A stretch of 32,475 nucleotides of DNA from Geminocystis sp. NIES-3709 (GTDB lineage Bacteria > Cyanobacteriota > Cyanobacteriia > Cyanobacteriales > Cyanobacteriaceae): positions 1 to 32,475 of the forward strand of contig NZ_AP014826.1 of NCBI RefSeq assembly GCF_001548115.1. Direction: 5' to 3'. Both the position numbers and the translations under genes were made by a program. Below, in pieces: positions 6,624 to 32,475 of the stretch (positions within the stretch are counted from its first letter, which is position 1; each line of letters begins with the position of its first letter). The notes below the pieces were generated by a model that did not search any database, had not been told where the DNA came from, and saw only the letters and a program-made list of their open reading frames with translations.

Positions 6624-9205
6624 TATTCTTCTCCTGTTTCTTCTTGTGGTTCTTCTGTCTTAACTATAGCTCCTAACAACAGACTAAGATTATATAATAT
6701 ATCCATAAGTCGTTTATGAATACTAACGTTGCCTTCCTTGAGTTTAGGAAAGGTCAGCATCGGGATATTTTCTCCTATCTCATCCACCTCCCCTACAAAT
6801 ACTGGCAATGTGCCTACTCCTATAGGCAACCCCAACCCCTTTAATAATTCCATGACGATCGCATTATTCTTGAGTGCTAATCCATGTGTCTGCTGTATAT
6901 TACTAGACAAACTAGAGAGCATATAAGCGACTTCTGCAAGTAGTGTGCCTAAACCCTCAAAACTAATATGGCTATTGCCATCGGCACTAGGCAAAAAACC
7001 ACTGCCCATCTCCTGCCAATTAAGTCCCTTATCTAAATCCTCTAAATAGCTCTCAAATAATTGTAGAAAATTCTCACAAAGAATAATATCACCCCTCAAA
7101 AATTCGTCATTAAGTGGGTCATCATCGGTAAGATTTTTATATTTATTACATCGGTTCTGGTAGGCTATTCCCATTCTTTCTTCTGTGTCAAGACCACCTA
7201 ATTGTCCATTATTTACTGAGGTATTGCCACCTTTATTATCAGCAAATTGTCCTCTTATCCACCCATCTGGAATTATTGCATTGGCTACCCCATCTCCGTC
7301 AGCATCTTGATAAGGTACTGTTACCCGTTGCCTAGTTGCAATAACAGAACCATCAGGATTAAAAGCTACACCGTAGCCTTTGGCAAACCAGTCTAGCTTC
7401 CGTGCTATATTCATGAAAAATGGCAACATCTCGGAGGGATTCTCTGGATTAGGATAATAGGCAAATTCTCCAGCACCCAGACAAGCATGAATTTCTTTTA
7501 ACCTTACACTATCAACCATATCGTCATTCTCCTGTATTGCTTTTATTCCTTGTAAGTAAATTAAGTATAATTCATCGGTAATGTTACCTGTTTCATACAA
7601 TTCTAACCATTCAGACTCTGACCACATTTCTAGGGTAGAGGATATATTATCGGATAAACTACCTACTTCTGTCTCTGTTAATACCTCACTGGTGAAGCCT
7701 TGTAAAACATTTTCTACAGTGTGGTTGTCATAGGTAGTATAAACAAAGTTGCCACTAATAAATCGGTAATTATCAGAGTCAGCTATATCCCTTAACAACA
7801 AGTACCGATTATTTATTGCCTTAAGATACTGATAAAACCCGCTATGATTCCAGTAATTGATAGCGTAATTAGGAGTCAACAACACTTGCTGATAACTCTT
7901 ATTGTAGGTTGCTATATCAACCAATACATCTTGACCAAAAACACTACCAACACCACTGGGAAAAGCACGATAAGCACCGATAAACCGACTCTCAATAGTA
8001 TCGTACAACTCATCAGTATCTGCATTTATAGGATGTGCCTGAACGTCTGCAATTACGGGATAATCTAATAAAGTCGTTCCTACCAACTCATAAAAGGCAA
8101 GGTTAGGGTTACTAAAGTCAGTAGTAACGTCATCAGGGTTTCTAGTAGTGTGCCAACCCGTCCGCTTAAACAACTGTAAATAGCTTAATCCATGCAGTTG
8201 AGCGTATCTTATAAGAGGGTTAAAGGCAAAAGTAGTATTATTAGGTAATATGCCTAAATCTTCATAAATACTGCCGTTACCCCACTTATTATTGTTAGCT
8301 CTTTGTAAATAACAAAAATCAGTAAGATAGCTAGGAAAGCCGTCAAACAATACAGTATAGCCGTCAGCGACTAAGTTATTAGATTCTGTAGTAACACCAC
8401 GCTCAATCTTTTGTAAGTATCTTTGTTGAGGCATTAAACCTACAGGGTAACGCATCCAACCATTGCTATAATCAATCTGATAGAAGTAGTCTATGTGTAC
8501 CTGATATAAGTAATCAGCTAAGGCATCGGCAACATCAGTAAAATACTCTTCAATGTCTGCATACAGCAGAAACGGTGGCAAACCTGACGGTTGGTAGTCG
8601 AACCATACACCGTTAATCGATCGACTGATAACAATACTGTTAGCACAGAAGGCATTATAATTAAACTCATAATTGGCATCCTCAATGGCATGATTGATGA
8701 TACGGTTTAAGTCAATCTGCTCACCATTTGACGTTATGTCGTACCGTACTTGGTTTATTGTCTTGATACTACCGACAACCCCGTTTTGCTCCCCTTGATA
8801 CAGCAAGAAAGTAACTCTATACTTACCCGTAGGCAATTCTACAAAATAATTCTCGTTACTCTGGTATCGTTGGGGATAATCAAAACTAGGCACAACAATC
8901 AGATTATCGCTACCGTCAAGAATCGGATTACCGTTTATATCAAGTAAGTTCCTCTCAAATATAGCCGTATCAGGGCTGAAGTTAAAGGTTTTGCAGAAGC
9001 CGTAAACGTAATCGCTATAATTTTCTGCCCATAAGTAGTTATAGGGGGTAAACCTATCGATCGCCATCAACTCATAACTAGGGATATTGCAGACATTACC
9101 AAACCCACTAGGTAAATGCAGAAACTCAAGCACGTCATAGGTTTGGTCAAAGTCATAACGTGCTATAGCTGATTTAAAAAGGATGTCGTAATCAGGATGT
9201 TGCAT
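6623..9205 (-). CDS. Large putative virion protein, 860 aa
   Basis: Largest protein in the window, strikingly rich in Tyr, Asn and Asp. It lacks the long coiled coil expected of a tape-measure protein. A DADGDG segment near residue 635 has the spacing of a calcium-binding loop. The last 120 residues look helical and amphipathic and end in an acidic tail (EEPQEETGEE). Its composition and length suit a host-contacting fibre, spike or minor coat protein. It lies between the 45-aa gene and the 410-aa gene with overlapping stops and starts. I cannot name its family. Confidence 0.6.
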   Translation of the reverse strand: MQHPDYDILFKSAIARYDFDQTYDVLEFLHLPSGFGNVCNIPSYELMAIDRFTPYNYLWAENYSDYVYGFCKTFNFSPDTAIFERNLLDINGNPILDGSDNLIVVPSFDYPQRYQSNENYFVELPTGKYRVTFLLYQGEQNGVVGSIKTINQVRYDITSNGEQIDLNRIINHAIEDANYEFNYNAFCANSIVISRSINGVWFDYQPSGLPPFLLYADIEEYFTDVADALADYLYQVHIDYFYQIDYSNGWMRYPVGLMPQQRYLQKIERGVTTESNNLVADGYTVLFDGFPSYLTDFCYLQRANNNKWGNGSIYEDLGILPNNTTFAFNPLIRYAQLHGLSYLQLFKRTGWHTTRNPDDVTTDFSNPNLAFYELVGTTLLDYPVIADVQAHPINADTDELYDTIESRFIGAYRAFPSGVGSVFGQDVLVDIATYNKSYQQVLLTPNYAINYWNHSGFYQYLKAINNRYLLLRDIADSDNYRFISGNFVYTTYDNHTVENVLQGFTSEVLTETEVGSLSDNISSTLEMWSESEWLELYETGNITDELYLIYLQGIKAIQENDDMVDSVRLKEIHACLGAGEFAYYPNPENPSEMLPFFMNIARKLDWFAKGYGVAFNPDGSVIATRQRVTVPYQDADGDGVANAIIPDGWIRGQFADNKGGNTSVNNGQLGGLDTEERMGIAYQNRCNKYKNLTDDDPLNDEFLRGDIILCENFLQLFESYLEDLDKGLNWQEMGSGFLPSADGNSHISFEGLGTLLAEVAYMLSSLSSNIQQTHGLALKNNAIVMELLKGLGLPIGVGTLPVFVGEVDEIGENIPMLTFPKLKEGNVSIHKRLMDILYNLSLLLGAIVKTEEPQEETGEE

Positions 9206-9342
9206 TATTGCCTTAATTTATAGCCGTCTTGTTGTAGTTTACGGATAGCTTGTTTAGTGGTAATCTCTTGCCCAGTGGCTTGTCTTACTTCTGCTTTTTT
9301 GGCTTGTATAGCCTGTCCGTTGATGTATTTAAGTTCTGTCAT
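9205..9342 (-). CDS. Small basic protein, 45 aa
   Basis: A 45-aa frame fills the gap between the beta-helix gene and the 860-aa gene. It begins MTELKYINGQAIQAKKAEVR and ends YKLRQ, and is rich in Lys, Gln and Arg with no hydrophobic segment. Its TAA overlaps the downstream ATG by one base, the same junction used elsewhere in this operon, which supports it as a real gene. It may be a small helical connector or chaperone; no family is recognised. Confidence 0.6.
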   Translation of the reverse strand: MTELKYINGQAIQAKKAEVRQATGQEITTKQAIRKLQQDGYKLRQ

Positions 9343-10346: not shown

Positions 10347-10658
10347 TTAATCAGTTAATTGTAAATCGTCATTTAATTGAGTTGCATCCCCAAAATTATT
10401 ATTAGATAAAATCTCAGGCAACATAGTTATTGCACCGATAATAACATCAAAAGAGATACTATATCGCAGTCTAATTGTATCCGTTGCTATACCAAGAGGT
10501 ATAGTAGGAATTAGTAACCCTGCGGAGTACAGCTTTTGTACTATTCTATAAGCAAGGTCGCCGCCAGAGAAATTGTTAGATAATCCCAAATCAGTTAACG
10601 GAATAATCAGATTATTACCGTCAAGATTAAGATTAGGAAAAATATTTGAAGGTGTCAC
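10347..10658 (-). CDS. Putative virion protein, 103 aa, with C-terminal LQLTD peptide
   Basis: Paralogue of the protein at 4306: TPSNIFPNLNLDGNN, then a helix, then DTIRLRYSISFDV. I chose the GTG at 10658 because GGAG lies eight bases upstream and the homology to the 4306 protein begins right there. An ATG at 10685 would add nine residues and enlarge the overlap with the upstream membrane gene to 53 bases. The C-terminus (FGDATQLNDDLQLTD) is nearly identical to that of the protein at 11233. Likely a structural subunit; role unknown. Confidence 0.62.
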   Translation of the reverse strand: MTPSNIFPNLNLDGNNLIIPLTDLGLSNNFSGGDLAYRIVQKLYSAGLLIPTIPLGIATDTIRLRYSISFDVIIGAITMLPEILSNNNFGDATQLNDDLQLTD

Positions 10659-11097
10659 GCTTTTTTCTCCATAGGTAAATACCATAGAACATAGGCAATG
10701 CTACCATAATATTATAGAAGAAATGCAGTTCTATGCGTGGAATAAGCAATTCAGGAAGAGTCGCAGGTTTAGGAAAACCCCACCAGTAATGCTTTGTGAC
10801 TGCCTGTAATAGTAATTGAAAATGCTCAAGATGATGATAAAAAGCAAGAACAAAGGTAGCGTATAGCCATTTATTCCACCTCATCATAGGATAAATACCG
10901 AGTAGCATAAACAGAGCGTGTCCATAATGCAAAAACTCACTACGCACGAGATAAGGTTTCCACAGTCCGAGCAGTCCTAAGCACTCAGGTCTAGCCCAGT
11001 GTAACAAGTGAAGTTGAATCATTTGAGCGATATGTTCTGCCAAATGTGAAAGGATAATCAGGTTAAATATTGTCAGCATCATACCTCCATGCAACAT
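10633..11097 (-). CDS. Histidine-rich integral membrane protein
   Basis: 154 aa with four or five hydrophobic helices. Histidines and glutamates lie at membrane edges in the patterns HLAEH, LHLLHW, FLHYGHA, FYHHLEH and RIELHFFYN, followed by a basic C-terminus (WRKKRD). I recall bacterial membrane proteins of unknown function with the same HxxEH, HxxEH and RxELHFFYN layout, so this is probably such a family captured by a phage. The clusters could bind a metal. ATGs at 11082 and 11079 lie just after a GGAGG and may be the true starts. The gene overlaps both neighbours. Confidence 0.62.
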   Translation of the reverse strand: MLHGGMMLTIFNLIILSHLAEHIAQMIQLHLLHWARPECLGLLGLWKPYLVRSEFLHYGHALFMLLGIYPMMRWNKWLYATFVLAFYHHLEHFQLLLQAVTKHYWWGFPKPATLPELLIPRIELHFFYNIMVALPMFYGIYLWRKKRDTFKYFS

Positions 11098-11232: not shown

Positions 11233-11844
11233 CTAATCAGTTAATTGTAAATTGTCATTCAACTGGGTTTCGTCTCCAAACCCGACTTCTTCTTCCTCCT
11301 CTGTAGCACCAATAGCAGATATTAGGTTATTAGTTTGTAAGTAGGTAGTATAATTAAACGGTATTGATACAGTACAGTCTATAGTCACAGTGTCAGTTAT
11401 ACCTTTAAAAGTCGGTGTTATCTGCACTCTTTTATAGTTCTCTACATCGTCCGCCAACAGTTGCTGACAAGCCCAATAAAAATATTGCTCTAAGGTCAAC
11501 CCACTAGGCTCGGCTGTTATTGGTAAAAAGTCACCAATACTCGGCTCGGCATCATCGGCAGTCCAGTCCACACTACCACCGAATCTCTCAATAATATTAG
11601 TGAGAAGATTAGCACCAGAGTTTAGAGCAGTATTACTAACCTGCAACCCGACTCTCAGGTTGACAAACTGAGTAAACCTGTCTCCTGATCCTGCAATAGC
11701 CAATGACAACTGCACAGCATCTTTTATTAACCTATCATCAGAGAAGCTGTACCCATATCTTAGGAGTAGGGCAGAGAATACGATCGCTCTCTGAAAAGAG
11801 TCAATACCGTAGGAGTTGCGGAGAGCAAGAGAAGGTAAAATCAT
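11233..11844 (-). CDS. Putative virion protein, 203 aa, with C-terminal LQLTD peptide
   Basis: The N-terminal half is helical (RNSYGIDSFQRAIVFSALLL). The C-terminal half carries ITPTFKGITDTVTIDCTVSI, resembling the strand pair of the proteins at 10347 and 4306. After an acidic run (TEEEEEVG) the protein ends FGDETQLNDNLQLTD. Its start overlaps the TGA of the upstream small gene (ATGA), making it the second gene of the late operon. Structural role inferred from context; family not recognised. Confidence 0.6.
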   Translation of the reverse strand: MILPSLALRNSYGIDSFQRAIVFSALLLRYGYSFSDDRLIKDAVQLSLAIAGSGDRFTQFVNLRVGLQVSNTALNSGANLLTNIIERFGGSVDWTADDAEPSIGDFLPITAEPSGLTLEQYFYWACQQLLADDVENYKRVQITPTFKGITDTVTIDCTVSIPFNYTTYLQTNNLISAIGATEEEEEVGFGDETQLNDNLQLTD

Positions 11845-12846: not shown

Positions 12847-13506
12847 TACATAAATCTTATTTAATAAGTAAGATTAACTTAATACATACTACAATTAGTG
12901 GTTTTAACATGGGTGTCTCCCTAAAATAATATATAGTATTATGCAAAGAGTAAATTATATAGATTAGTTGTGATTGCTTTTAAATAAAGGCTTTTAGGAT
13001 TTATGTAGTAATCTGTAACTGTGTATTAATCTTTTTTCCCTTTTACTGTAACTGTTTAATTAATTAGTTAAACTCTATATTTTTAGTTATTTTAATTGTA
13101 GTTTATTTGTTGTTGTCTTTTACTGTACCTGTTTTTGTAATTCTTGTTGTGTATAGTTTTTATATGTAGTAATAGTAAAAAAGTTTATTTTTTAAATAAA
13201 TTAACTAAACTATAATTTTTTCTTGCATATGTAGTAACTATAAAAACAACTACATAAAACAAATTAAATTAATGTAGTATGTAAGACTAAGTTTAATATA
13301 TAATACTAAAATGTAATAAATGTATAACGTACTTACACCCTAAAAATATAAAAAGCGCTCTTTTTTCCCTTTTTGTTATACTACATAGACTAGGTAAGGA
13401 TTTCAGACTTTAGAAAAAGTTTTAAACCGATACATAACCGATACTCCTCTTCTAAAACCCTTACTATGAAATAATTTACTTTGTACCGTAATGAATTGTG
13501 TAATCC
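12847..13506. other. AT-rich gene-free region with short repeats, candidate replication origin
   Basis: No credible gene in 660 bases. ATGTAGTA occurs in direct orientation near 13003, 13164, 13229 and 13272. Inverse copies or partial copies lie near 12887, 13249 and 13379. CTGTAACTGT occurs at 13013-13022 and 13046-13055, and CTGTACCTGT at 13123-13132. TTTTACTGTAMCTGTTT is repeated at 13041-13057 and 13118-13134 (16 of 17), and TTTTTTCCCTTTT at 13032-13044 and 13361-13373. Spaced repeats, high AT content and an adjacent winged-helix gene sharing a domain with the primase fit an iteron-type origin. This is inference. Confidence 0.5.
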
Positions 13507-13911
13507 TTAATTTGTACCTTTTGTACCTTTTTGATAAATAGTAACTTTGACCCCTTTATAAGTAGGCACAATGTAGCAAAAGTTCTTATTGGCTAAGGAT
13601 TTAAGTACCTTGCCTATATCGGCAGTAGTTAAGCCACTAGATTTAAACCTACGGCTGGATTTATAGACATCATTAGAAGTAGCAGTTTTCTTCTTTTTAA
13701 CTATGGTTAATACCTTAGTTTCCAGTTCTGTCAGGTAATCAGGAATCTGAGGTTCTTCTCTGTATTTTAGTGGCATATAAAAACTTCCCTTGTCGCCATA
13801 CAACTTGCTTAATTCCTCCATTTTGTTTAATGCCTCTTGATATAATAAGTAGTGCATTTCTACTGTTTTTCGTAGTCTGTCCATCTCCCGATCCAGTTCT
13901 TCTCTATTCAT
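13507..13911 (-). CDS. Coiled-coil winged-helix DNA-binding protein sharing the primase C-terminal domain
   Basis: 134 aa: an N-terminal coiled coil (about 1-42, dimerisation likely), a linker, then a winged-helix-like domain (about 60-130). The latter aligns with the last 72 residues of the primase/helicase at 26380. Matching segments are SNDVYKSSRRFKSSGLTTAD against ANDVFKSSRQFKTDGMTTAD, and KGVKVTIY against KGVKVKYV. The two domains are homologous. The gene flanks the repeat-rich gene-free region, so it may bind repeats there as a replication initiator, loader or regulator. It is transcribed leftward toward that region, opposite to the next gene. Confidence 0.68.
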   Translation of the reverse strand: MNREELDREMDRLRKTVEMHYLLYQEALNKMEELSKLYGDKGSFYMPLKYREEPQIPDYLTELETKVLTIVKKKKTATSNDVYKSSRRFKSSGLTTADIGKVLKSLANKNFCYIVPTYKGVKVTIYQKGTKGTN

Positions 13912-13966
13912 AGTTGTTCCTTATCTAATATTTACTATGTCTATATTATAGTTGTAAAAAGGTACA

Positions 13967-14013: not shown

Positions 14014-14307
14014 ATGGATATTTACTATGTGATATATGAAGACATCAAACTAGGTAGTAAAGGCGAAAGAGTAGAAAGGGAATACATAAGGACTCATGCA
14101 AAGACACGGAGTAATCTAAGCATAGAGTGGACGCAATCATTAGTGAAGGCACAAAAATTTAAAACCATAGGAGAAGCTGTGACTATGGCAAAAAGATTAG
14201 TGGACGATAAACTGACTTTGCATATAGGGGAATACATAGAAGGAATACTTTATAGCACAGTGACAATAAAAGGCAATTGGAATGTGCAAGGATGGGAGGT
14301 TCAGTAA
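14014..14307 (+). CDS. Hypothetical protein, 97 aa
   Basis: First gene of a three-gene plus-strand operon (14014-15064). Beta-strand start (MDIYYVIYEDIKLGSKGERV), a helix (IGEAVTMAKRLVDDKL) and a C-terminal strand region (ILYSTVTIKGNWNVQGWEVQ). The C-terminus contains the ribosome binding site of the next gene (GGGAGG at 14294-14299). No family recognised; likely a small early phage protein. Confidence 0.6.
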   Translation: MDIYYVIYEDIKLGSKGERVEREYIRTHAKTRSNLSIEWTQSLVKAQKFKTIGEAVTMAKRLVDDKLTLHIGEYIEGILYSTVTIKGNWNVQGWEVQ

Positions 14308-15184: not shown

Positions 15185-15592
15185 TTATGCTGAGTTTACC
15201 AAAGCAGTAATATCTTTTACTAATTCTCCTGCACTATTAGTTGTATAACCTTTAGCTTTTGATTTATGTTTTTTTAGGATTGTTTGTAATTTTGAATAAA
15301 TATCTGTGTCAAGGTCAAGGTCATGAGCATATCTTAGTATATCATCGGCAAAACAGACGGGGACTCTAATAGTTCTGGTAGGAGTGTGTTCCCATTTTCT
15401 TGCGAAGATGGTTTTATCAGTTCTTTTGCTTCTACTTCTAACTAAATTAGTATTTCCCATTGCTAATCTGACAGCATTCCATAGCAACTCAGCATTTTCA
15501 GGGGGACAGCCTGTTATTTCTACAATAGTATTAATGTCATTTTCTACAATAGCATTGCGTAAGTTATAAAGTTTTTTTTTAGATTCAATCAT
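15185..15592 (-). CDS. Putative DNA-binding regulatory protein, 135 aa
   Basis: Basic middle region (NLVRSRSKRTDKTIFARKWE), then TRTIRVPVCFADDILRYAHDLD, which has the beta-strand-plus-helix shape of ribbon-helix-helix-like segments common in cyanobacterial plasmid and phage proteins. It starts from the long palindromic control region at 15621-15668, so autoregulation is plausible. The N-terminal 60 residues are helical. The family assignment is tentative. Confidence 0.5.
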   Translation of the reverse strand: MIESKKKLYNLRNAIVENDINTIVEITGCPPENAELLWNAVRLAMGNTNLVRSRSKRTDKTIFARKWEHTPTRTIRVPVCFADDILRYAHDLDLDTDIYSKLQTILKKHKSKAKGYTTNSAGELVKDITALVNSA

Positions 15593-19875: not shown

Positions 19876-20151
19876 TTATTTGAGAAGTTTTAGAATGTAA
19901 GAATCAACAGCTGTGGCATCAATTGTATAAGTGTCCTCCCGAAAGATTAACTTAAGTCCTTTCCGTGCCTCGTCTGCTGTAATTTTGTGTGACTTATACA
20001 AGCGATACAGGCTTTGTAAGTATTCCTGTTCGCTATATTGCATCGCTTCTCGCTCTTCATGTTGTCTCATAATACTGTCACACTGCATTAAAGCATCCAC
20101 AATCTTAGGTAATGCAGAAACAAACTGAGTAATTGCGTTAAATTCATTCAT
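19876..20151 (-). CDS. Hypothetical helical protein, 91 aa, first gene of the minus early operon
   Basis: Mostly helical (ITQFVSALPKIVDALMQCDS, EQEYLQSLYRLYKSHKIT) with a segment ITADEARKGLKLI near residue 60. It is driven by TTGACA-17-TATACT at 20236-20208. Its 29-nt leader is the same, in inverted orientation, as the leader of the gene at 20483, so the two divergent genes share 5' untranslated sequence and probably control. Function unknown. Confidence 0.55.
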   Translation of the reverse strand: MNEFNAITQFVSALPKIVDALMQCDSIMRQHEEREAMQYSEQEYLQSLYRLYKSHKITADEARKGLKLIFREDTYTIDATAVDSYILKLLK

Positions 20152-20180
20152 ATTTAGTTGTCAATGTACTGTGTGTCGTG
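20152..20180 (-). repeat. Inverted leader repeat, left copy
   Basis: 29 bases immediately before the start of the minus gene at 20151. Read on the minus strand it starts CACGACACACAGTACATTGA and ends ACTAAAT. It is exactly complementary to 20451-20479. It contains no Shine-Dalgarno. Perfect conservation of a leader outside coding sequence points to a function in RNA. Confidence 0.75.
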
Positions 20181-20207
20181 ATTAGCTTAATTGCTTCTCA
20201 CATTTCT

Positions 20208-20236
20208 AGTATATCTAGTTATCTTAATTGTGTCAA
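20208..20236 (-). promoter_or_regulatory. Promoter TTGACACAATTA type for the minus early operon
   Basis: Minus strand TTGACA (20236-20231), 17-bp spacer starting CAATTAAG, TATACT (20213-20208). It reads into the 20152-20180 leader and the gene at 20151. Confidence 0.72.
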
Positions 20237-20277
20237 GTAATTAATGACATTAATTTTCTATGGTTCATAGGCTTATC

Positions 20278-20306
20278 TTGACACAATAAAATAATATTGG
20301 TATATC
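20278..20306 (+). promoter_or_regulatory. Plus promoter TTGACACAAT type, upstream copy
   Basis: TTGACA at 20278-20283, 17 bp, TATATC at 20301-20306. It starts RNA about 170 bases before the gene at 20483 and ahead of the second promoter at 20403, so the RNA between them (about 20,313-20,400, including a locally GC-richer stretch) is either a long leader or a small RNA. Confidence 0.55.
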
Positions 20307-20402
20307 ATAGCCAGTTAAGATTCTATCGGCTTTTACGGGCGACCTCGTGCGACATAGGTGATATTGACTAATTAGGTTAATAAAAAATATTTTAGAAAGC
20401 AC

Positions 20403-20431
20403 TTGACACAATTAAGAATGTTTGTTAAATT
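20403..20431 (+). promoter_or_regulatory. Plus promoter TTGACACAATTA type, downstream copy
   Basis: TTGACA at 20403-20408, 17-bp spacer starting CAATTAAG like the minus promoter at 20236, TAAATT at 20426-20431. It drives the leader at 20451 and the gene at 20483. Confidence 0.65.
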
Positions 20432-20450
20432 ATAGGTGTGGGAATAAAAC

Positions 20451-20479
20451 CACGACACACAGTACATTGACAACTAAAT
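20451..20479 (+). repeat. Inverted leader repeat, right copy
   Basis: Exact complement of 20152-20180, placed directly before the ATG at 20483. The two copies make the untranslated leaders of the divergent operons identical up to the start codon region (ATATG in one, ATATTATG in the other). Confidence 0.75.
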
Positions 20480-20482
20480 ATT

Positions 20483-20790: not shown

Positions 20791-20970
20791 ATGTGCATAC
20801 ATGATGAGATTGGATGGGACGCAAATAATAACGTAGTATGCTGTTTATGCGGTGAGGTACTACGAGAGGATAATGACGACTATATAGACGACTATATAGA
20901 CGACTATATAGACGACTATGAATACGACTATGACATGGCTTGGGACGCTTGGCATGGTCTACATCAATAA
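20791..20970 (+). CDS. Small acidic repeat protein, 59 aa (DDYI repeats)
   Basis: A 59-aa frame starting MCIHDEIGWDANNNVVCCLC, with a C-x-x-C-like cluster (CCLCGEVL), then tandem DDYI units (DDYIDDYIDDYIDDYEYDYD), then an aromatic end (MAWDAWHGLHQ). The repeats arise from a 12-bp DNA unit (TATATAGACGAC) present three times exactly at 20881-20916, with degenerate copies on both sides. The net charge is strongly negative, compatible with a DNA or RNA mimic. The stem-loop plus ACACT-ATG leader shared with other genes here supports translation. A minus-strand frame over the same bases is a by-product. Confidence 0.6.
   Translation: MCIHDEIGWDANNNVVCCLCGEVLREDNDDYIDDYIDDYIDDYEYDYDMAWDAWHGLHQ
20881..20916. 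repeat. 12-bp tandem repeat, three perfect copies
   Basis: TATATAGACGAC three times in tandem. Partial or diverged units extend it to about 20875-20934. It encodes the DDYI repeats and, as a multiple of three, can expand or contract without a frameshift. Confidence 0.8.
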
Positions 20971-26379: not shown

Positions 26380-28779
26380 ATGTACAGTATAACACAATTA
26401 GGGAACAGATATGCTGTCTGCAAGGATAAGATTTATCTTGATACACAGTGGCAGAAAGGTAAATCTTATGATTATTGCATGGAGGAGATAGCTAAAGGTA
26501 GAGCCAATGGCTATGGTATCATAACAGGCGAGGTTGAAGGGTTGGGACTGGTTGCGATCGACTTTGATGGCGAATCATCAACGGCAGTAGCGGAAGCAAT
26601 AGGATTGTGGTTAAACGATAATGATACTACTCAGTGGACTTCTGGTAAAAAGGGACATCATCAAAGACTCTACAAAATACCACAACCTCATCTGCCTTTT
26701 TGGAGTGACATCACTAAACATGACCTAAAACAAGTAGGAAAGGCTAAAGCAATTGGCGATGAGCATTTAGAAATAAGGTATAATAATCATGCTTCGGTGT
26801 TACCTGAGTCAGTACATCCAGAAACAGGATATTATAAATGGATAAATGGTTCTGAAGCTAGAGAATTATCATTTGCGGAATCTTATGATCTACTTAATCA
26901 ATGCACTATATTCCATAGTGAAGTAACGGCTGACGATGAGCTAAATCTGATTCACGAAGCCTTAACCTATATATCACCTGATGACTATCATACTTGGGTG
27001 ATGGTCGGTGCTTCATTGTACCGTCATGGCATAGATATTACAGTTTGGGAAGCGTGGAGTCAACAATCGCCGAAATATAAACCTCAAGAAATTAATACTA
27101 AATGGCAATCTTTTAGTAAAATTACCAATATCAATTTGGGGACATTGATACATTATGCAAAAGTTAACGGATTTGACCAAAGTCAATGGATGCGTCAGAA
27201 CCTAAAAAAACAACGCAAAGCCCTTAATAATACCCTCAATAATAGTAATCCTGACACAGCAGAAAATAACGTTATATCGCTTACTCAGCAATTAGTAGAT
27301 AAATTATCCTCTCCTGATATTGCCCCTGACCAACGTGATTTACAAATAGCAGTATTCTGTCATCAACATAAAGTTAGTAGTAATACCATATGTAGAGCGA
27401 TTGAATCACGGCAACGGCAAACAGACACAGAACTAGACCTTGAACAACTTAGTAAAACTTTTAATGATTTATCCGCAGTTCCACAGCAAAAGTTAGACCT
27501 AGCCTATCTTTTGGGCGATTATCCAGCTACCGTAATTGAACAAATAGCTTCTGTTGTGCCAACTAATCCAGATGCTTTACTAACTATTATGTTACCTGTT
27601 ATAGCCTCCGTAATAGGTACAAGAAGTAATATAGTAGTTAACCACCACATAGGTTATTATGTGCCGTTCATTCTCAGAACAATGATTGTTGCACCTTCTG
27701 GAAAAAAGAAATCACCTACCGCCCGTCTAGCGATCGACTGTCTGCACAAAAAGAATTACCAATTATACCAACGGTATCTCTCGGACTATGAATATTACCA
27801 AGAACAACTAGAGGAAAAAGGCAATAAACCTCAAGAACCTAAACAATCCTATGTGCTTTTGCAAGACGCAACTATTGACGGGATGATTACAGCCCATGCA
27901 GAAAATCCTAATGGCTTTCTCGTTTACTGTGATGAGGTTTATGGTTACTTTAACAGAATGAACAAATTTACTAAGGGTGGTGATGATGTACAACGTGACC
28001 TTGAACTATATGAGGGAAAACCACTTATCAAGACAAGGAAAAGCAAGGAAAGCAATGTCTATCTTCCGAGAACAGCTATAAGCATAACAGGTACTATACA
28101 GGAGGTAGCACTACAACAAATATTAGGGAACAAACAAGACCTAACTGGTATTTCAGCAAGGTGGTTAATGTGGTGTGGCAATATGCCAAATGGGTATTTA
28201 CAGGACAGAACCGCAGTAGATGATAGCTTTGCAGAAATGATGAAATACATTACCGATAGCTTATGGTATATGGATTTGACTGATTTAACTATATCAGATG
28301 AAGCCTACCGATTATTACAACAATGGCAACGTACCGTAATAGATGCTATTCCTAATTGTAATAGCCTACAATCAGAAACTAAACATAGTAAGATTGAGTC
28401 TGATTGTGTAAAAATAGCAGGAGTTTTACATTATTTCTACAAGATTTTACATGATATAGAAGGCACTGAAATAACAGCAAATATAATGGAACGGGCGATA
28501 ATTATAGCTAATTATTACCTTAATCATTATAGCTACCTTGTTGAAAAAGCCAATGGTACTCTATTAAGTGCTAGGCTACTAAAAGTATTAGATATAGTAC
28601 AGAGGCGGGTGATAGTAACAGCTAATGATGTGTTTAAATCCAGCAGACAGTTCAAAACTGATGGTATGACTACTGCTGATGTAGCACAATTATTATTACA
28701 GTTGGTAGCTTTAGGAAAAGCTGAGAGAATAGCCACAAACAAAGGAGTAAAGGTTAAATATGTAGGAGAGAAGAAATAG
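26380..28779 (+). CDS. Primase-polymerase / PriCT-2 / DUF3987 replication protein with C-terminal winged helix
   Basis: 799 aa in four parts. About 1-160: AEP-type bifunctional primase with AIDFDG (D61, D63) and a KGHHQRLYKI His motif. About 185-260: PriCT-2 (ALTYISPDDYHTWVMVG, WEAWSQQSPKY). About 370-700: DUF3987 helicase-like part with P-loop variant APSGKKKSP (about 438-446). About 728-799: winged-helix domain shared with the protein at 13507. Such proteins start and unwind replication of cyanobacterial plasmids and phages. The unusual point is the last domain, which presumably contacts DNA at the origin. No ribosome binding site other than the ACACAAGGTAAT leader. Confidence 0.85.
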   Translation: MYSITQLGNRYAVCKDKIYLDTQWQKGKSYDYCMEEIAKGRANGYGIITGEVEGLGLVAIDFDGESSTAVAEAIGLWLNDNDTTQWTSGKKGHHQRLYKIPQPHLPFWSDITKHDLKQVGKAKAIGDEHLEIRYNNHASVLPESVHPETGYYKWINGSEARELSFAESYDLLNQCTIFHSEVTADDELNLIHEALTYISPDDYHTWVMVGASLYRHGIDITVWEAWSQQSPKYKPQEINTKWQSFSKITNINLGTLIHYAKVNGFDQSQWMRQNLKKQRKALNNTLNNSNPDTAENNVISLTQQLVDKLSSPDIAPDQRDLQIAVFCHQHKVSSNTICRAIESRQRQTDTELDLEQLSKTFNDLSAVPQQKLDLAYLLGDYPATVIEQIASVVPTNPDALLTIMLPVIASVIGTRSNIVVNHHIGYYVPFILRTMIVAPSGKKKSPTARLAIDCLHKKNYQLYQRYLSDYEYYQEQLEEKGNKPQEPKQSYVLLQDATIDGMITAHAENPNGFLVYCDEVYGYFNRMNKFTKGGDDVQRDLELYEGKPLIKTRKSKESNVYLPRTAISITGTIQEVALQQILGNKQDLTGISARWLMWCGNMPNGYLQDRTAVDDSFAEMMKYITDSLWYMDLTDLTISDEAYRLLQQWQRTVIDAIPNCNSLQSETKHSKIESDCVKIAGVLHYFYKILHDIEGTEITANIMERAIIIANYYLNHYSYLVEKANGTLLSARLLKVLDIVQRRVIVTANDVFKSSRQFKTDGMTTADVAQLLLQLVALGKAERIATNKGVKVKYVGEKK

Positions 28780-31084: not shown

Positions 31085-31338
31085 ACCGACTAATAAAAAC
31101 TCTTTTAATTTGGCAACAAGCTCTCCGTCTCTTTTTATCCCGATACTCTAAATTTTGTATGGTACTTGCCACAAATCCATTGACAGCTAAAGCTACTCCC
31201 ACTGCGACTCCTAAACCATTTAATAATTGCCCAACTCCTGTAGGGGTAATTTTAGTAACAATAGCACCAATTCCAGAATTAGGGTCTAACACAGATAATG
31301 GAGCAGTAATTTTATTTATAGGGTCAATAAACTGTATT
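31083..31338 (-). pseudogene. Gene remnant cut by the IS, C-terminal part
   Basis: The visible C-terminal part (about 84 codons) contains a Gly/Val-rich hydrophobic stretch (GVGQLLNGLGVAVGVALAVN) and a basic end (RDKKRRRACCQIKRVFISR), so it was probably a small membrane protein. An open frame can be extended into the IS to 31400, but the bases beyond 31338 belong to the IS left end, so the first 20 residues of that longer frame are not original. The true N-terminus is missing from the window. Function unknown. Confidence 0.6.
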
Positions 31339-32475
31339 AGATCTCTTGCAAAATTATAATGAACATAAAAAGATGATAGGATAAGACAAAATATTAGCAA
31401 TCGCCTTTAATTTAATTAAAGAAAATAAGTGCCTTTATACAGTTAATCATAATTCTTGCTTATATAATTCTCAACCTAGGAAAGTAAATACCCATTGGCG
31501 ATAAAATACACAAATTAATTTACTGGATTCTTTAATATAGTTCTTAAATAATAGCTATGTCTTTTTTCACTATTTCATAGTTATAAATTCCCGCAATTAA
31601 GTTGAATCTTAACCCAAATCTTTTTCTTTTATTTCTATATTTTTCTGATAGTATTCTAAATATTTTAAGTTTTCTATTTACATGTTCAATTACGATTCTT
31701 TGTCGATTTAACTCTCTATTTTTTCTTTTTTCTTCTTGGGTTAACTTTCTTTTTTTTGTTTTCTTTTTTGGTATTTCGCTTAATTTATGAATTTTTTCTA
31801 TACCTTGATAACCTTTGTCTACTAAACACTTTATTTTTTCACTTAATGGTAATCTACTGTTTTTAAAAATTTTAAAATCATGTTCTCTTCCTCGTCCATT
31901 TACATAACAAATTATTTCCAAGGTATCTTTATTAACTACTAATTGTGCTTTAAATGTATGTTCCTTCTTTTTGCCACTATAGTAAATTTTTTGTCTTTTT
32001 TTTGGTCTTTCGATTGCTATTTCAGTAACATCTATTAATACTGCCTTAATTTCATTCTCTTTTTTTATCAATTCTTTTTTACCACCTAGGGAAAAATAAC
32101 CTGATTTGAGCAAGATTTTTTCAATTTTATGAACTGTTCTACAAACCGTTGATTCTGAGATATTCCAGTACTCTGATATGTGAAAATAAGTTCGATATTC
32201 TCTCAAATATTCCAAGGTTACTAAAATCTGCTCGGACACTGTTAATTTGCTTTTCCTTCCTCTTTTGTGATTGTTTTGTTCTTTTTTGACTATTTCTACT
32301 AAAAGATTATAGGTTTCTTTTTTTACTCCAAATCTCCTTTTAAACTTTTCTGGCTTTAATTTTTTTATTCTCTCAAGTTTCATAATTAAATCTTATACTT
32401 AAGGTATCCTCCATCGCCCAAAATTATAGATTATTCTGGTTAATCCTATCTCGTATTTAATTTTGCAAGAGGTCT
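31339..32475 (-). mobile_element. IS5-type insertion sequence, 1137 bp
   Basis: Terminal inverted repeats of 18 bp: AGATCTCTTGCAAAATTA (31339-31356) and AGACCTCTTGCAAAATTA (complement of 32458-32475), 17 of 18 identical. The window ends exactly at the right repeat. The one transposase gene fills most of the element. Target duplication cannot be checked because the right flank is outside the window. The insertion lies inside a minus-strand gene. Confidence 0.85.
31544..32383 (-). CDS. IS5-family DDE transposase
   Basis: 279 aa. The N-terminus has a helix-turn-helix part (LTVSEQILVTLEYLREYRTY, SEYWNISESTVCRTVHKIEK). The DDE core shows LIDVTEIAIERP (first Asp), CLVDKGYQGIEK (second Asp, followed by YQG) and HVNRKLKIFRIL with the Glu in IVIEHVN (third acidic). 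It is very lysine- and isoleucine-rich, consistent with its AT-rich DNA. The length and complete motifs suggest an intact enzyme. It stands alone within the IS with no accessory gene. Confidence 0.88.
   Translation of the reverse strand: MKLERIKKLKPEKFKRRFGVKKETYNLLVEIVKKEQNNHKRGRKSKLTVSEQILVTLEYLREYRTYFHISEYWNISESTVCRTVHKIEKILLKSGYFSLGGKKELIKKENEIKAVLIDVTEIAIERPKKRQKIYYSGKKKEHTFKAQLVVNKDTLEIICYVNGRGREHDFKIFKNSRLPLSEKIKCLVDKGYQGIEKIHKLSEIPKKKTKKRKLTQEEKRKNRELNRQRIVIEHVNRKLKIFRILSEKYRNKRKRFGLRFNLIAGIYNYEIVKKDIAII

What the first reader, a model, noticed from the sequence alone, without database searches (positions are those of the whole stretch)
12847..13911. Primase/helicase C-terminal domain is also carried by a stand-alone protein beside a repeat-rich gene-free region
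Seen: residues about 60-130 of the 13507 protein align with the last 72 residues of the 799-aa primase/helicase (SNDVYKSSRRFKSSGLTTAD against ANDVFKSSRQFKTDGMTTAD). Seen: the next 660 bases have no gene but spaced ATGTAGTA and CTGTAACTGT-type repeats. Inference: both proteins bind the same DNA through one domain, so the 13507 product may load or time the primase at this origin, or compete with it. A replication control pair sharing a single DNA-binding domain would be unusual.
Basis: partly seen in the sequence, partly recalled or inferred. Interest (0 to 1): 0.75.

Follow-up and report, generated by a model that had tools for sequence, protein, structure and literature searches.

The report
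Primase tail domain beside probable origin
A phage-like element in a Geminocystis-type cyanobacterium carries a small extra copy of the DNA-gripping tail of its own replication primase, sitting right next to a cluster of repeats that is probably its replication start site, which suggests a two-protein control of copying that can be tested directly.

Summary
The 134-aa protein (13507-13911, minus) matches the C-terminus of the 799-aa Prim-Pol/PriCT-2/DUF3987 primase-helicase (28 of 58 identical, E 5e-12). AlphaFold2 gives both a winged helix. The 660-bp gap is the longest in my gene layout, 23% GC, with 5 of the window's 6 ATGTAGTA.

Comparison explains it. Among 48 DUF3987 loci tested, 31 have a repeat array within 800 bp 3' of the winged-helix codons, against 1 of 48 control segments. 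The window's primase has none; its array instead follows the stand-alone winged-helix gene. So gene plus gap looks like the 3' end of such a replicon, with the helicase body now elsewhere, and the gap is the likely origin.

The segment most variable between relatives is the best conserved between the two window domains (15/22 against 13/36), and the pair shows purifying selection (dN 0.48, dS saturated). This supports shared DNA specificity. Competition, i.e. negative control, is my preferred but unproven role. No other intact stand-alone copy appeared in 388 genomes. Origins 3' of winged-helix initiators are known (pRN1, PICIs); the split arrangement looks like a new variant.

The parts
13507..13911 (-). 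stand-alone winged-helix protein, 134 aa; predicted N-terminal helix 3-38, winged helix 62-125; AAGGA ribosome-site-like sequence before the ATG
13537..13728 (-). winged-helix domain (residues 62-125), paralogue of the primase C-terminus
13615..13680 (-). segment (residues 78-99) that varies most between relatives but is 15/22 identical to the window primase
12847..13506 (.). probable origin: 660-bp AT-rich non-coding gap with spaced repeats, between two convergent gene ends
13003..13010 (+). ATGTAGTA repeat
13164..13171 (+). ATGTAGTA repeat (13162-13181 and 13227-13246 are 85% identical)
13229..13236 (+). ATGTAGTA repeat
13272..13279 (+). ATGTAGTA repeat
13379..13386 (-). ATGTAGTA repeat
12887..12893 (-). 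TGTAGTA, weaker copy
13013..13022 (+). CTGTAACTGT repeat
13046..13055 (+). CTGTAACTGT repeat
13123..13132 (+). CTGTACCTGT repeat
13182..13226 (.). 45-bp stretch of 13% GC between two direct repeats; candidate melting region (inference; rank 195 of 32430 45-mers, the lowest being near 4.95 kb)
26380..28779 (+). 799-aa primase-helicase: Prim-Pol, PriCT-2, DUF3987, C-terminal winged helix
28582..28755 (+). primase residues 735-792, the part aligned with the small protein
15185..15592 (-). 135-aa protein whose homologues lie just upstream of the primase gene in 3 relatives; here it is upstream of the stand-alone winged-helix gene

Best explanation
The 660-bp gap is the likely replication origin of this phage-like, probably circular element, and its repeats are sites read by the C-terminal winged helix of the DUF3987 primase-helicase. 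In many relatives this winged helix is encoded directly next to a repeat array, at or near the 3' end of the primase gene. In this element the pairing was split: a copy of the winged-helix segment stayed beside the array as a separate small protein with its own start and a new N-terminal helix, while the full primase is encoded in another operon about 12.5 kb away. The primase would reach the array in trans. The small protein, with the same recognition segment but no primase or helicase, most likely occupies the same repeats and limits initiation, acting as a competitor or copy-control protein. Shown: homology, predicted fold, repeat clustering, the relatives' layout, the conservation pattern. 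Inferred: origin function, DNA binding by both proteins, the direction of the split, and negative control.
For: Homology and fold. Arrays 3' of the winged-helix codons in 31 of 48 DUF3987 loci against 1 of 48 control segments, including plasmids pGM03 (8 copies), pCHL69-1 (9) and contig G012:C40 (13), each 0 of 200 shuffles. After the window primase: 2 copies, 496 of 500 shuffles as high; beside the small gene: 5 copies, 0 of 500. Homologues of the 15185-15592 protein lie just upstream of the primase in pCHL69-1, G011 and G012; here that protein lies upstream of the small gene. Segment 78-99 is 15/22 identical between the two window domains against 13/36 elsewhere (Fisher p 0.03), the reverse of two pairs of relatives (11/20 against 33/39; 9/20 against 30/39); dN 0.47-0.48 with dS 1.8-3.1. 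Cumulative GC skew is lowest near 11-12 kb and highest near 29 kb. Precedents: PICI origins are immediately 3' of the initiator gene, two iteron sets flanking an AT-rich region (PMC6092414, passages); pRN1 needs a region downstream of orf904, and P4 alpha's winged helix binds origin repeats (PMC4234260).
Against: Seventeen of the 48 loci did not pass the array test. The window's array is sparser than in pGM03, pCHL69-1 or G012, and its words (TGTAGTA, CTGTAAC) lack the TGTY/RACA core found in 13 of 13 tabulated relatives with R or K at the key position. The small protein's branch is long (1.02 against 0.14) and its grouping with the window primase is not supported in a tree of 11 short domains. 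The accessory-gene layout is not universal: no homologue was found beside the primase of pGM03 or G004, pCHL69-1 has a second copy elsewhere, and one copy in the G006 chromosome has no primase hit in the 40 kb fetched. GC skew follows gene direction and is not independent evidence. Shared 9-mers between the gap and the small gene's promoter do not exceed chance, so there is no sign of autoregulation through these words. No binding or replication data exist.
Confidence: 0.5

Rival explanations
1. Relic: the gene and array are the left-behind 3' end and origin of a former primase locus, and the small protein no longer has a function.
For: Comparable leftovers exist. In G011 a 177-aa open frame holds the winged helix after loss of the helicase middle, with an array next to it. 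In G003 only the last 34 aa of the domain remain (open frame 43 aa), followed by 3 exact copies of AAGTAGAG, not tested against shuffles. The small protein's branch is long.
Against: The ORF is intact with a ribosome-site-like sequence, a confidently predicted N-terminal helix (block pLDDT 89 and 92 for residues 1-20), dS saturated with dN 0.48, and a conserved recognition segment. dN/dS averages over both lineages, so part of this comes from the primase.
Confidence: 0.2
2. Ordinary repressor: the small protein is a winged-helix transcription regulator that happens to descend from the primase domain, acting at promoters; the gap is not an origin.
For: The best Foldseek hits are winged-helix regulators such as MecI, Fur and MarR, only one at E below 0.001. 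The N-terminal helix could mediate dimers (inference). TACTGTA[AC]C occurs at 13044, 13121, 23534 and, reversed, at 13961 between the divergent genes 13507-13911 and 14014-14307.
Against: The array lies at the 3' end, away from the gene's promoter, where relatives carry theirs. Sharing of words between promoter and gap is at chance level. Pfam Penicillinase_R reaches 15.3 bits against a cut-off of 22.6.
Confidence: 0.15
3. Positive partner: the small protein opens or marks the array and recruits the primase-helicase through a mixed complex.
For: Same recognition segment. RSF1010 splits origin binding, helicase and primase among three proteins (stated in PMC4234260 section 18).
Against: The primase kept its own winged helix, so it should not need a separate recognition protein. 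BLASTP shows no further significant similarity between the two proteins outside the winged helix, though a contact surface need not be shared sequence.
Confidence: 0.15

Closest known systems
PICI / SaPI Pri-Rep-ori replication module
   Same: Origin immediately 3' of the initiator gene; two sets of iterons around an AT-rich stretch (PMC6092414 passages). Relatives of the window primase show a similar layout.
   Different: Here the array follows a helicase-less copy of the DNA-binding domain, not the initiator gene.
pRN1 ORF904 replicon (crenarchaeal plasmid)
   Same: Prim-Pol, helicase and C-terminal winged helix; essential region directly downstream of the gene (PMC4234260 passages and section 18 part 1).
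   Different: pRN1 has a stem-loop rather than iterons; its partner ORF56 is called a transcriptional repressor and copy-number control protein, with no shared winged helix mentioned in the parts I read.
Phage P4 alpha protein
   Same: Winged helix binds repeats at the origin, then unwinding and priming (as cited in PMC4234260).
   Different: Toprim-type primase there, Prim-Pol here. P4's control protein Cnr is recalled, not read.
pIGRK RepR / RepR'
   Same: Two proteins that both bind the origin, one initiating and one inhibiting (PMC6854812 abstract).
   Different: RepR' comes from an internal start in the same gene; here it would be a separate, diverged gene about 12.5 kb away.
Lambda O gene with internal origin
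   Same: Initiator codons and iterons adjoin: four 18-bp iterons plus a 38-bp AT-rich stretch inside gene O (PMC3349717 passages; PMC3985674 passages). In 25 of the 31 array-positive DUF3987 loci the reading frame also continues 164-442 codons past the winged helix, so the array lies partly or wholly inside it.
   Different: O has no primase or helicase domain (recalled); no separate DNA-binding-only paralogue is described in the passages read.
Cyanobacterial CyRepA / CyRepX plasmid initiators
   Same: Cyanobacterial plasmid initiators; several Reps on one plasmid are reported (PMC10899382 passages).
   Different: Different families; the main text holds no 'DUF3987' or 'iteron'.

Membership tests
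Prim-Pol/helicase/winged-helix initiator with origin 3' of its gene (pRN1, PICI type) | Prim-Pol and helicase domains in the large protein | tested here: met
   Prim-Pol 5.5e-10, PriCT-2 4e-17, DUF3987 2.6e-40; phrog_2373 DNA helicase 4.4e-28
Prim-Pol/helicase/winged-helix initiator with origin 3' of its gene (pRN1, PICI type) | C-terminal winged helix | tested here: met
   AlphaFold2 model of the last 120 residues, block pLDDT 80-91 over the domain
Prim-Pol/helicase/winged-helix initiator with origin 3' of its gene (pRN1, PICI type) | Repeat array directly 3' of the initiator gene | tested here: not met
   Window primase: 2 copies, 496/500 shuffles as high; 3 copies, 28/200 over 800 bp. The array is beside the stand-alone domain instead
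Iteron origin | Clustered repeats next to an AT-rich stretch | tested here: met
   density lower than in pGM03, pCHL69-1 and G012
Iteron origin | Initiator binding and origin activity | not testable with these tools
   Needs footprinting and replication mapping
Antagonistic Rep pair (pIGRK RepR/RepR') | Second protein shares the DNA-binding domain but lacks initiator parts | tested here: met
   no primase or helicase family match in the small protein
Antagonistic Rep pair (pIGRK RepR/RepR') | In-frame product of the same gene | tested here: not met
   Separate gene at 13507-13911
Antagonistic Rep pair (pIGRK RepR/RepR') | Opposite effects on replication | not testable with these tools
   No functional data
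MecI/BlaI (Penicillinase_R) repressors | Pfam gathering score | tested here: not met
   15.3 bits against 22.6

The most novel reading that the evidence does not exclude
A split initiator-origin: the origin is held by a helicase-less paralogue of the primase's own DNA-binding domain, and the replicating primase must compete with, or be admitted by, that paralogue from a distant gene. This gives a built-in switch between quiet maintenance and phage-like amplification.
Probability: 0.3. Interest if true: 0.7.

Novelty: new variant of a known kind. Interest (0 to 1): 0.52.

Why it matters
DUF3987 proteins are common on cyanobacterial plasmids (the primase matches 76 plasmid records, the commonest genera being cyanobacterial) but Pfam still calls the domain 'unknown function'. 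My paper searches did not show these arrays in print: DUF3987 with cyanobacteri- and plasmid gave one unrelated paper, with winged helix the same paper; two looser searches returned 503 and 1,000 papers, and none of the 12 and 8 listed contains DUF3987. The comparison points to a concrete origin for many of them, often inside the reading frame just after the winged helix, and to a residue that covaries with the repeat. If the split pair works as proposed, it is a simple natural test of how an initiator domain without a helicase controls an origin.

Tried and rejected
No relatives of the small protein were found in phage records, plasmid records, viral contigs, genome contigs, or in 99 related genomes searched besides its own. 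Searches with the primase C-terminus in viral contigs, the primase, the 860-aa tail-region protein, alignment A1 and alignment A4 gave no confirmed loci. These are pattern searches for close relatives and so are weak evidence of absence. Rfam found nothing at gathering threshold and no tRNA was found. The promoter/terminator scan of the region gave no more hits than shuffles. A shared-word test for autoregulation was at chance. The unassigned region 20152-20482 was considered as an alternative origin and set aside: it holds TTGACACAAT, which occurs 11 times exactly, spread over the window, so it looks like a regulon operator. Circularity rests only on a matching 2-bp flank of the terminal IS, which is weak. 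Four matches in frames of 353-368 aa (L055-L058) were checked: the three whose frame was printed (L056-L058) are larger proteins with an HPFQDGN motif, recalled as Fic, not stand-alone copies; L055 lies near a contig end and its frame was not printed.

The W/R covariation is exploratory. I chose the position after seeing the data; the table holds 29 rows of the 31 (window rows left out), of which L015 was set aside as unreadable; one row (L005) has an array that did not pass the shuffle test; the loci are related.

Full report
Setting. The window is the whole of contig C6 (32,475 bp) of a 4.43-Mb genome in 12 contigs. A genome of the same genus carries a 17,905-bp contig that matches plasmid pGM03 of Geminocystis sp. 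NIES-3708 in length and primase, so I infer a Geminocystis-type cyanobacterium. The contig has phage-like genes: an endolysin (phrog_181) and a weak tail-protein match, a weak Erf-like match and a weak polymerase-exonuclease match, and an SSB. Among the 30 proteins sent to PHROGs (not every ORF) I saw no portal or capsid match and only weak small-terminase matches of HTH regions. An IS ends exactly at the contig end; its 2-bp flank matches the contig start, as expected of a circle, but that is weak.

Observation. The small protein and the primase C-terminus share 28 of 58 residues. AlphaFold2, with only the two window sequences as alignment, gives the small protein a long helix (3-38), a poorly predicted linker and a winged helix (62-125), and gives the primase C-terminus the same winged helix. 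The nearest solved folds are generic winged helices such as MecI, Fur and MarR. The gap lies downstream of both flanking genes, is 23% GC and is the longest in my gene layout. Its repeats cluster beyond chance by the tests in the observation check, with the weaker tests stated there.

What the relatives show. For several close relatives of the primase the stretch right after the stop codon is full of repeats: CCTCTACC 8 times in pGM03, TGTCTAAA 9 times in pCHL69-1, AAGTGAGA 13 times in G012, each 0 of 200 shuffles. G004 has only 3 copies there (20 of 200), with 5 copies of ACAGACAA upstream of the gene. In many longer DUF3987 proteins the array lies inside the reading frame, just after the winged-helix codons. 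Counting from the end of the winged helix, 31 of 48 loci have an array within 800 bp (at least 4 copies of an 8-mer and at most 1 of 200 shuffles as high) against 1 of 48 control segments taken 500-1300 bp before it (50 loci given, L027 had no C-terminal match and L019 too little sequence). Seventeen loci, including the window's own primase and G004, did not pass. Some loci are duplicates.

What is different here. The window's primase has no array after it, and a scan of the whole window found no array inside it either. The only comparable non-coding array lies directly 3' of the stand-alone winged-helix gene. A 135-aa protein at 15185-15592 has homologues within about 0.4-0.7 kb upstream of the primase in pCHL69-1, G011 and G012, divergent from it in two and on the same strand in one. 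In the window it lies 1.3 kb upstream of the stand-alone gene on the same strand, with three plus-strand genes between. So the neighbourhood accessory gene, winged helix, array is kept and the primase body is missing from that place. No such homologue was found beside the primase of pGM03 or G004, and pCHL69-1 and the G006 chromosome have further copies away from a primase. Two relatives show related decay: G011 kept the winged helix after losing the helicase middle, and G003 kept only the last 34 residues of the domain, with three repeats after them. In 388 genomes of the order (own included) the profile matched 20; besides the window's pair the frames were large proteins (353-1175 aa), the G011 and G003 remnants, and two short frames with stops. 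No other intact stand-alone copy was seen.

Do both domains read the same DNA? Indirect evidence says yes. Between close relatives with different repeat words the domain differs most in one segment (11/20 identical there against 33/39 elsewhere; 9/20 against 30/39). Between the two window domains that segment is instead the best conserved (15/22 against 13/36, p 0.03). Both also share a two-residue longer loop. One position in the segment covaries with the repeat word: R or K goes with TGTY/RACA in 13 of 13 rows, other residues in 2 of 15; W and R forms with different words occur both in Geminocystis relatives and in two Planktothrix-type plasmid domains (L047, L098). Both window domains have R there. 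However, the window's words contain TGTA rather than TGTY, so they fit this only in part. The pair has dN 0.47-0.48 and dS 1.8-3.1 over 58 codons: selection has kept the protein sequence, though this averages both lineages, and most of the change lies on the small protein's branch.

Mechanism. I take the gap to be the origin and the repeats to be winged-helix sites. The primase would act on it in trans. The small protein has the reading head and a possible dimerising helix but no motor, so occupying repeats and limiting initiation is the simplest role. Comparable antagonism is known from pIGRK (PMC6854812, abstract and outline only). A relic, a plain repressor and a positive partner remain possible.

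Known or new. Origin 3' of a winged-helix initiator is reported for pRN1 (PMC4234260, passages and section 18 part 1), and PICIs have their origin 3' of the initiator gene (PMC6092414, passages); lambda keeps its iterons inside gene O (PMC3349717 and PMC3985674, passages). I did not find the DUF3987 arrays in print by the searches, which cover open-licence PMC papers only and, for the last two, short listings. The split layout I found in no other locus examined.

Noticed in passing
1431, 15631, 15649, 18881, 20227, 20278, 20403, 21794, 22373, 22974, 29151: TTGACACAAT occurs 11 times exactly (21 with up to one mismatch against 3.75 expected), several in gaps or just before genes: probably the -35/operator of a phage regulon.
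   Followed up: partly
20150-20183 and 20448-20481: 34-bp inverted repeat, 97% complementary, forming the shared leader of two divergent genes.
   Followed up: no
L091, L092, L095-L098, L082: Repeat arrays lie inside the coding sequence of long DUF3987 genes just after the winged-helix codons: probable origins within the initiator gene.
   Followed up: partly
L006, L007, L009, L047 against L005, L008, L048, L052, L098: W or R at one winged-helix position covaries with the repeat word; a possible specificity code.
   Followed up: partly
L085 about 9137-9239 (G003:C111): Remnant of the last 34 primase residues followed by CCTCTACTTTT-type repeats in a genome of the same genus.
   Followed up: partly
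31338-32475: IS with 12 exact copies of 1076 bases in the genome, this one included, 9 of them on C1; it ends exactly at the contig end.
   Followed up: partly
20875-20931: 12-bp tandem repeat GACGACTATATA, 4.8 copies.
   Followed up: no
10347-10685 and 11233-11844: Two proteins of the tail-like region end in nearly the same peptide, FGD(A/E)TQLND(D/N)LQLTD.
   Followed up: no
L036, L037: In G004 and G011 the same repeat word occurs both upstream and downstream of the chromosomal primase, which may mark an integrated element.
   Followed up: no
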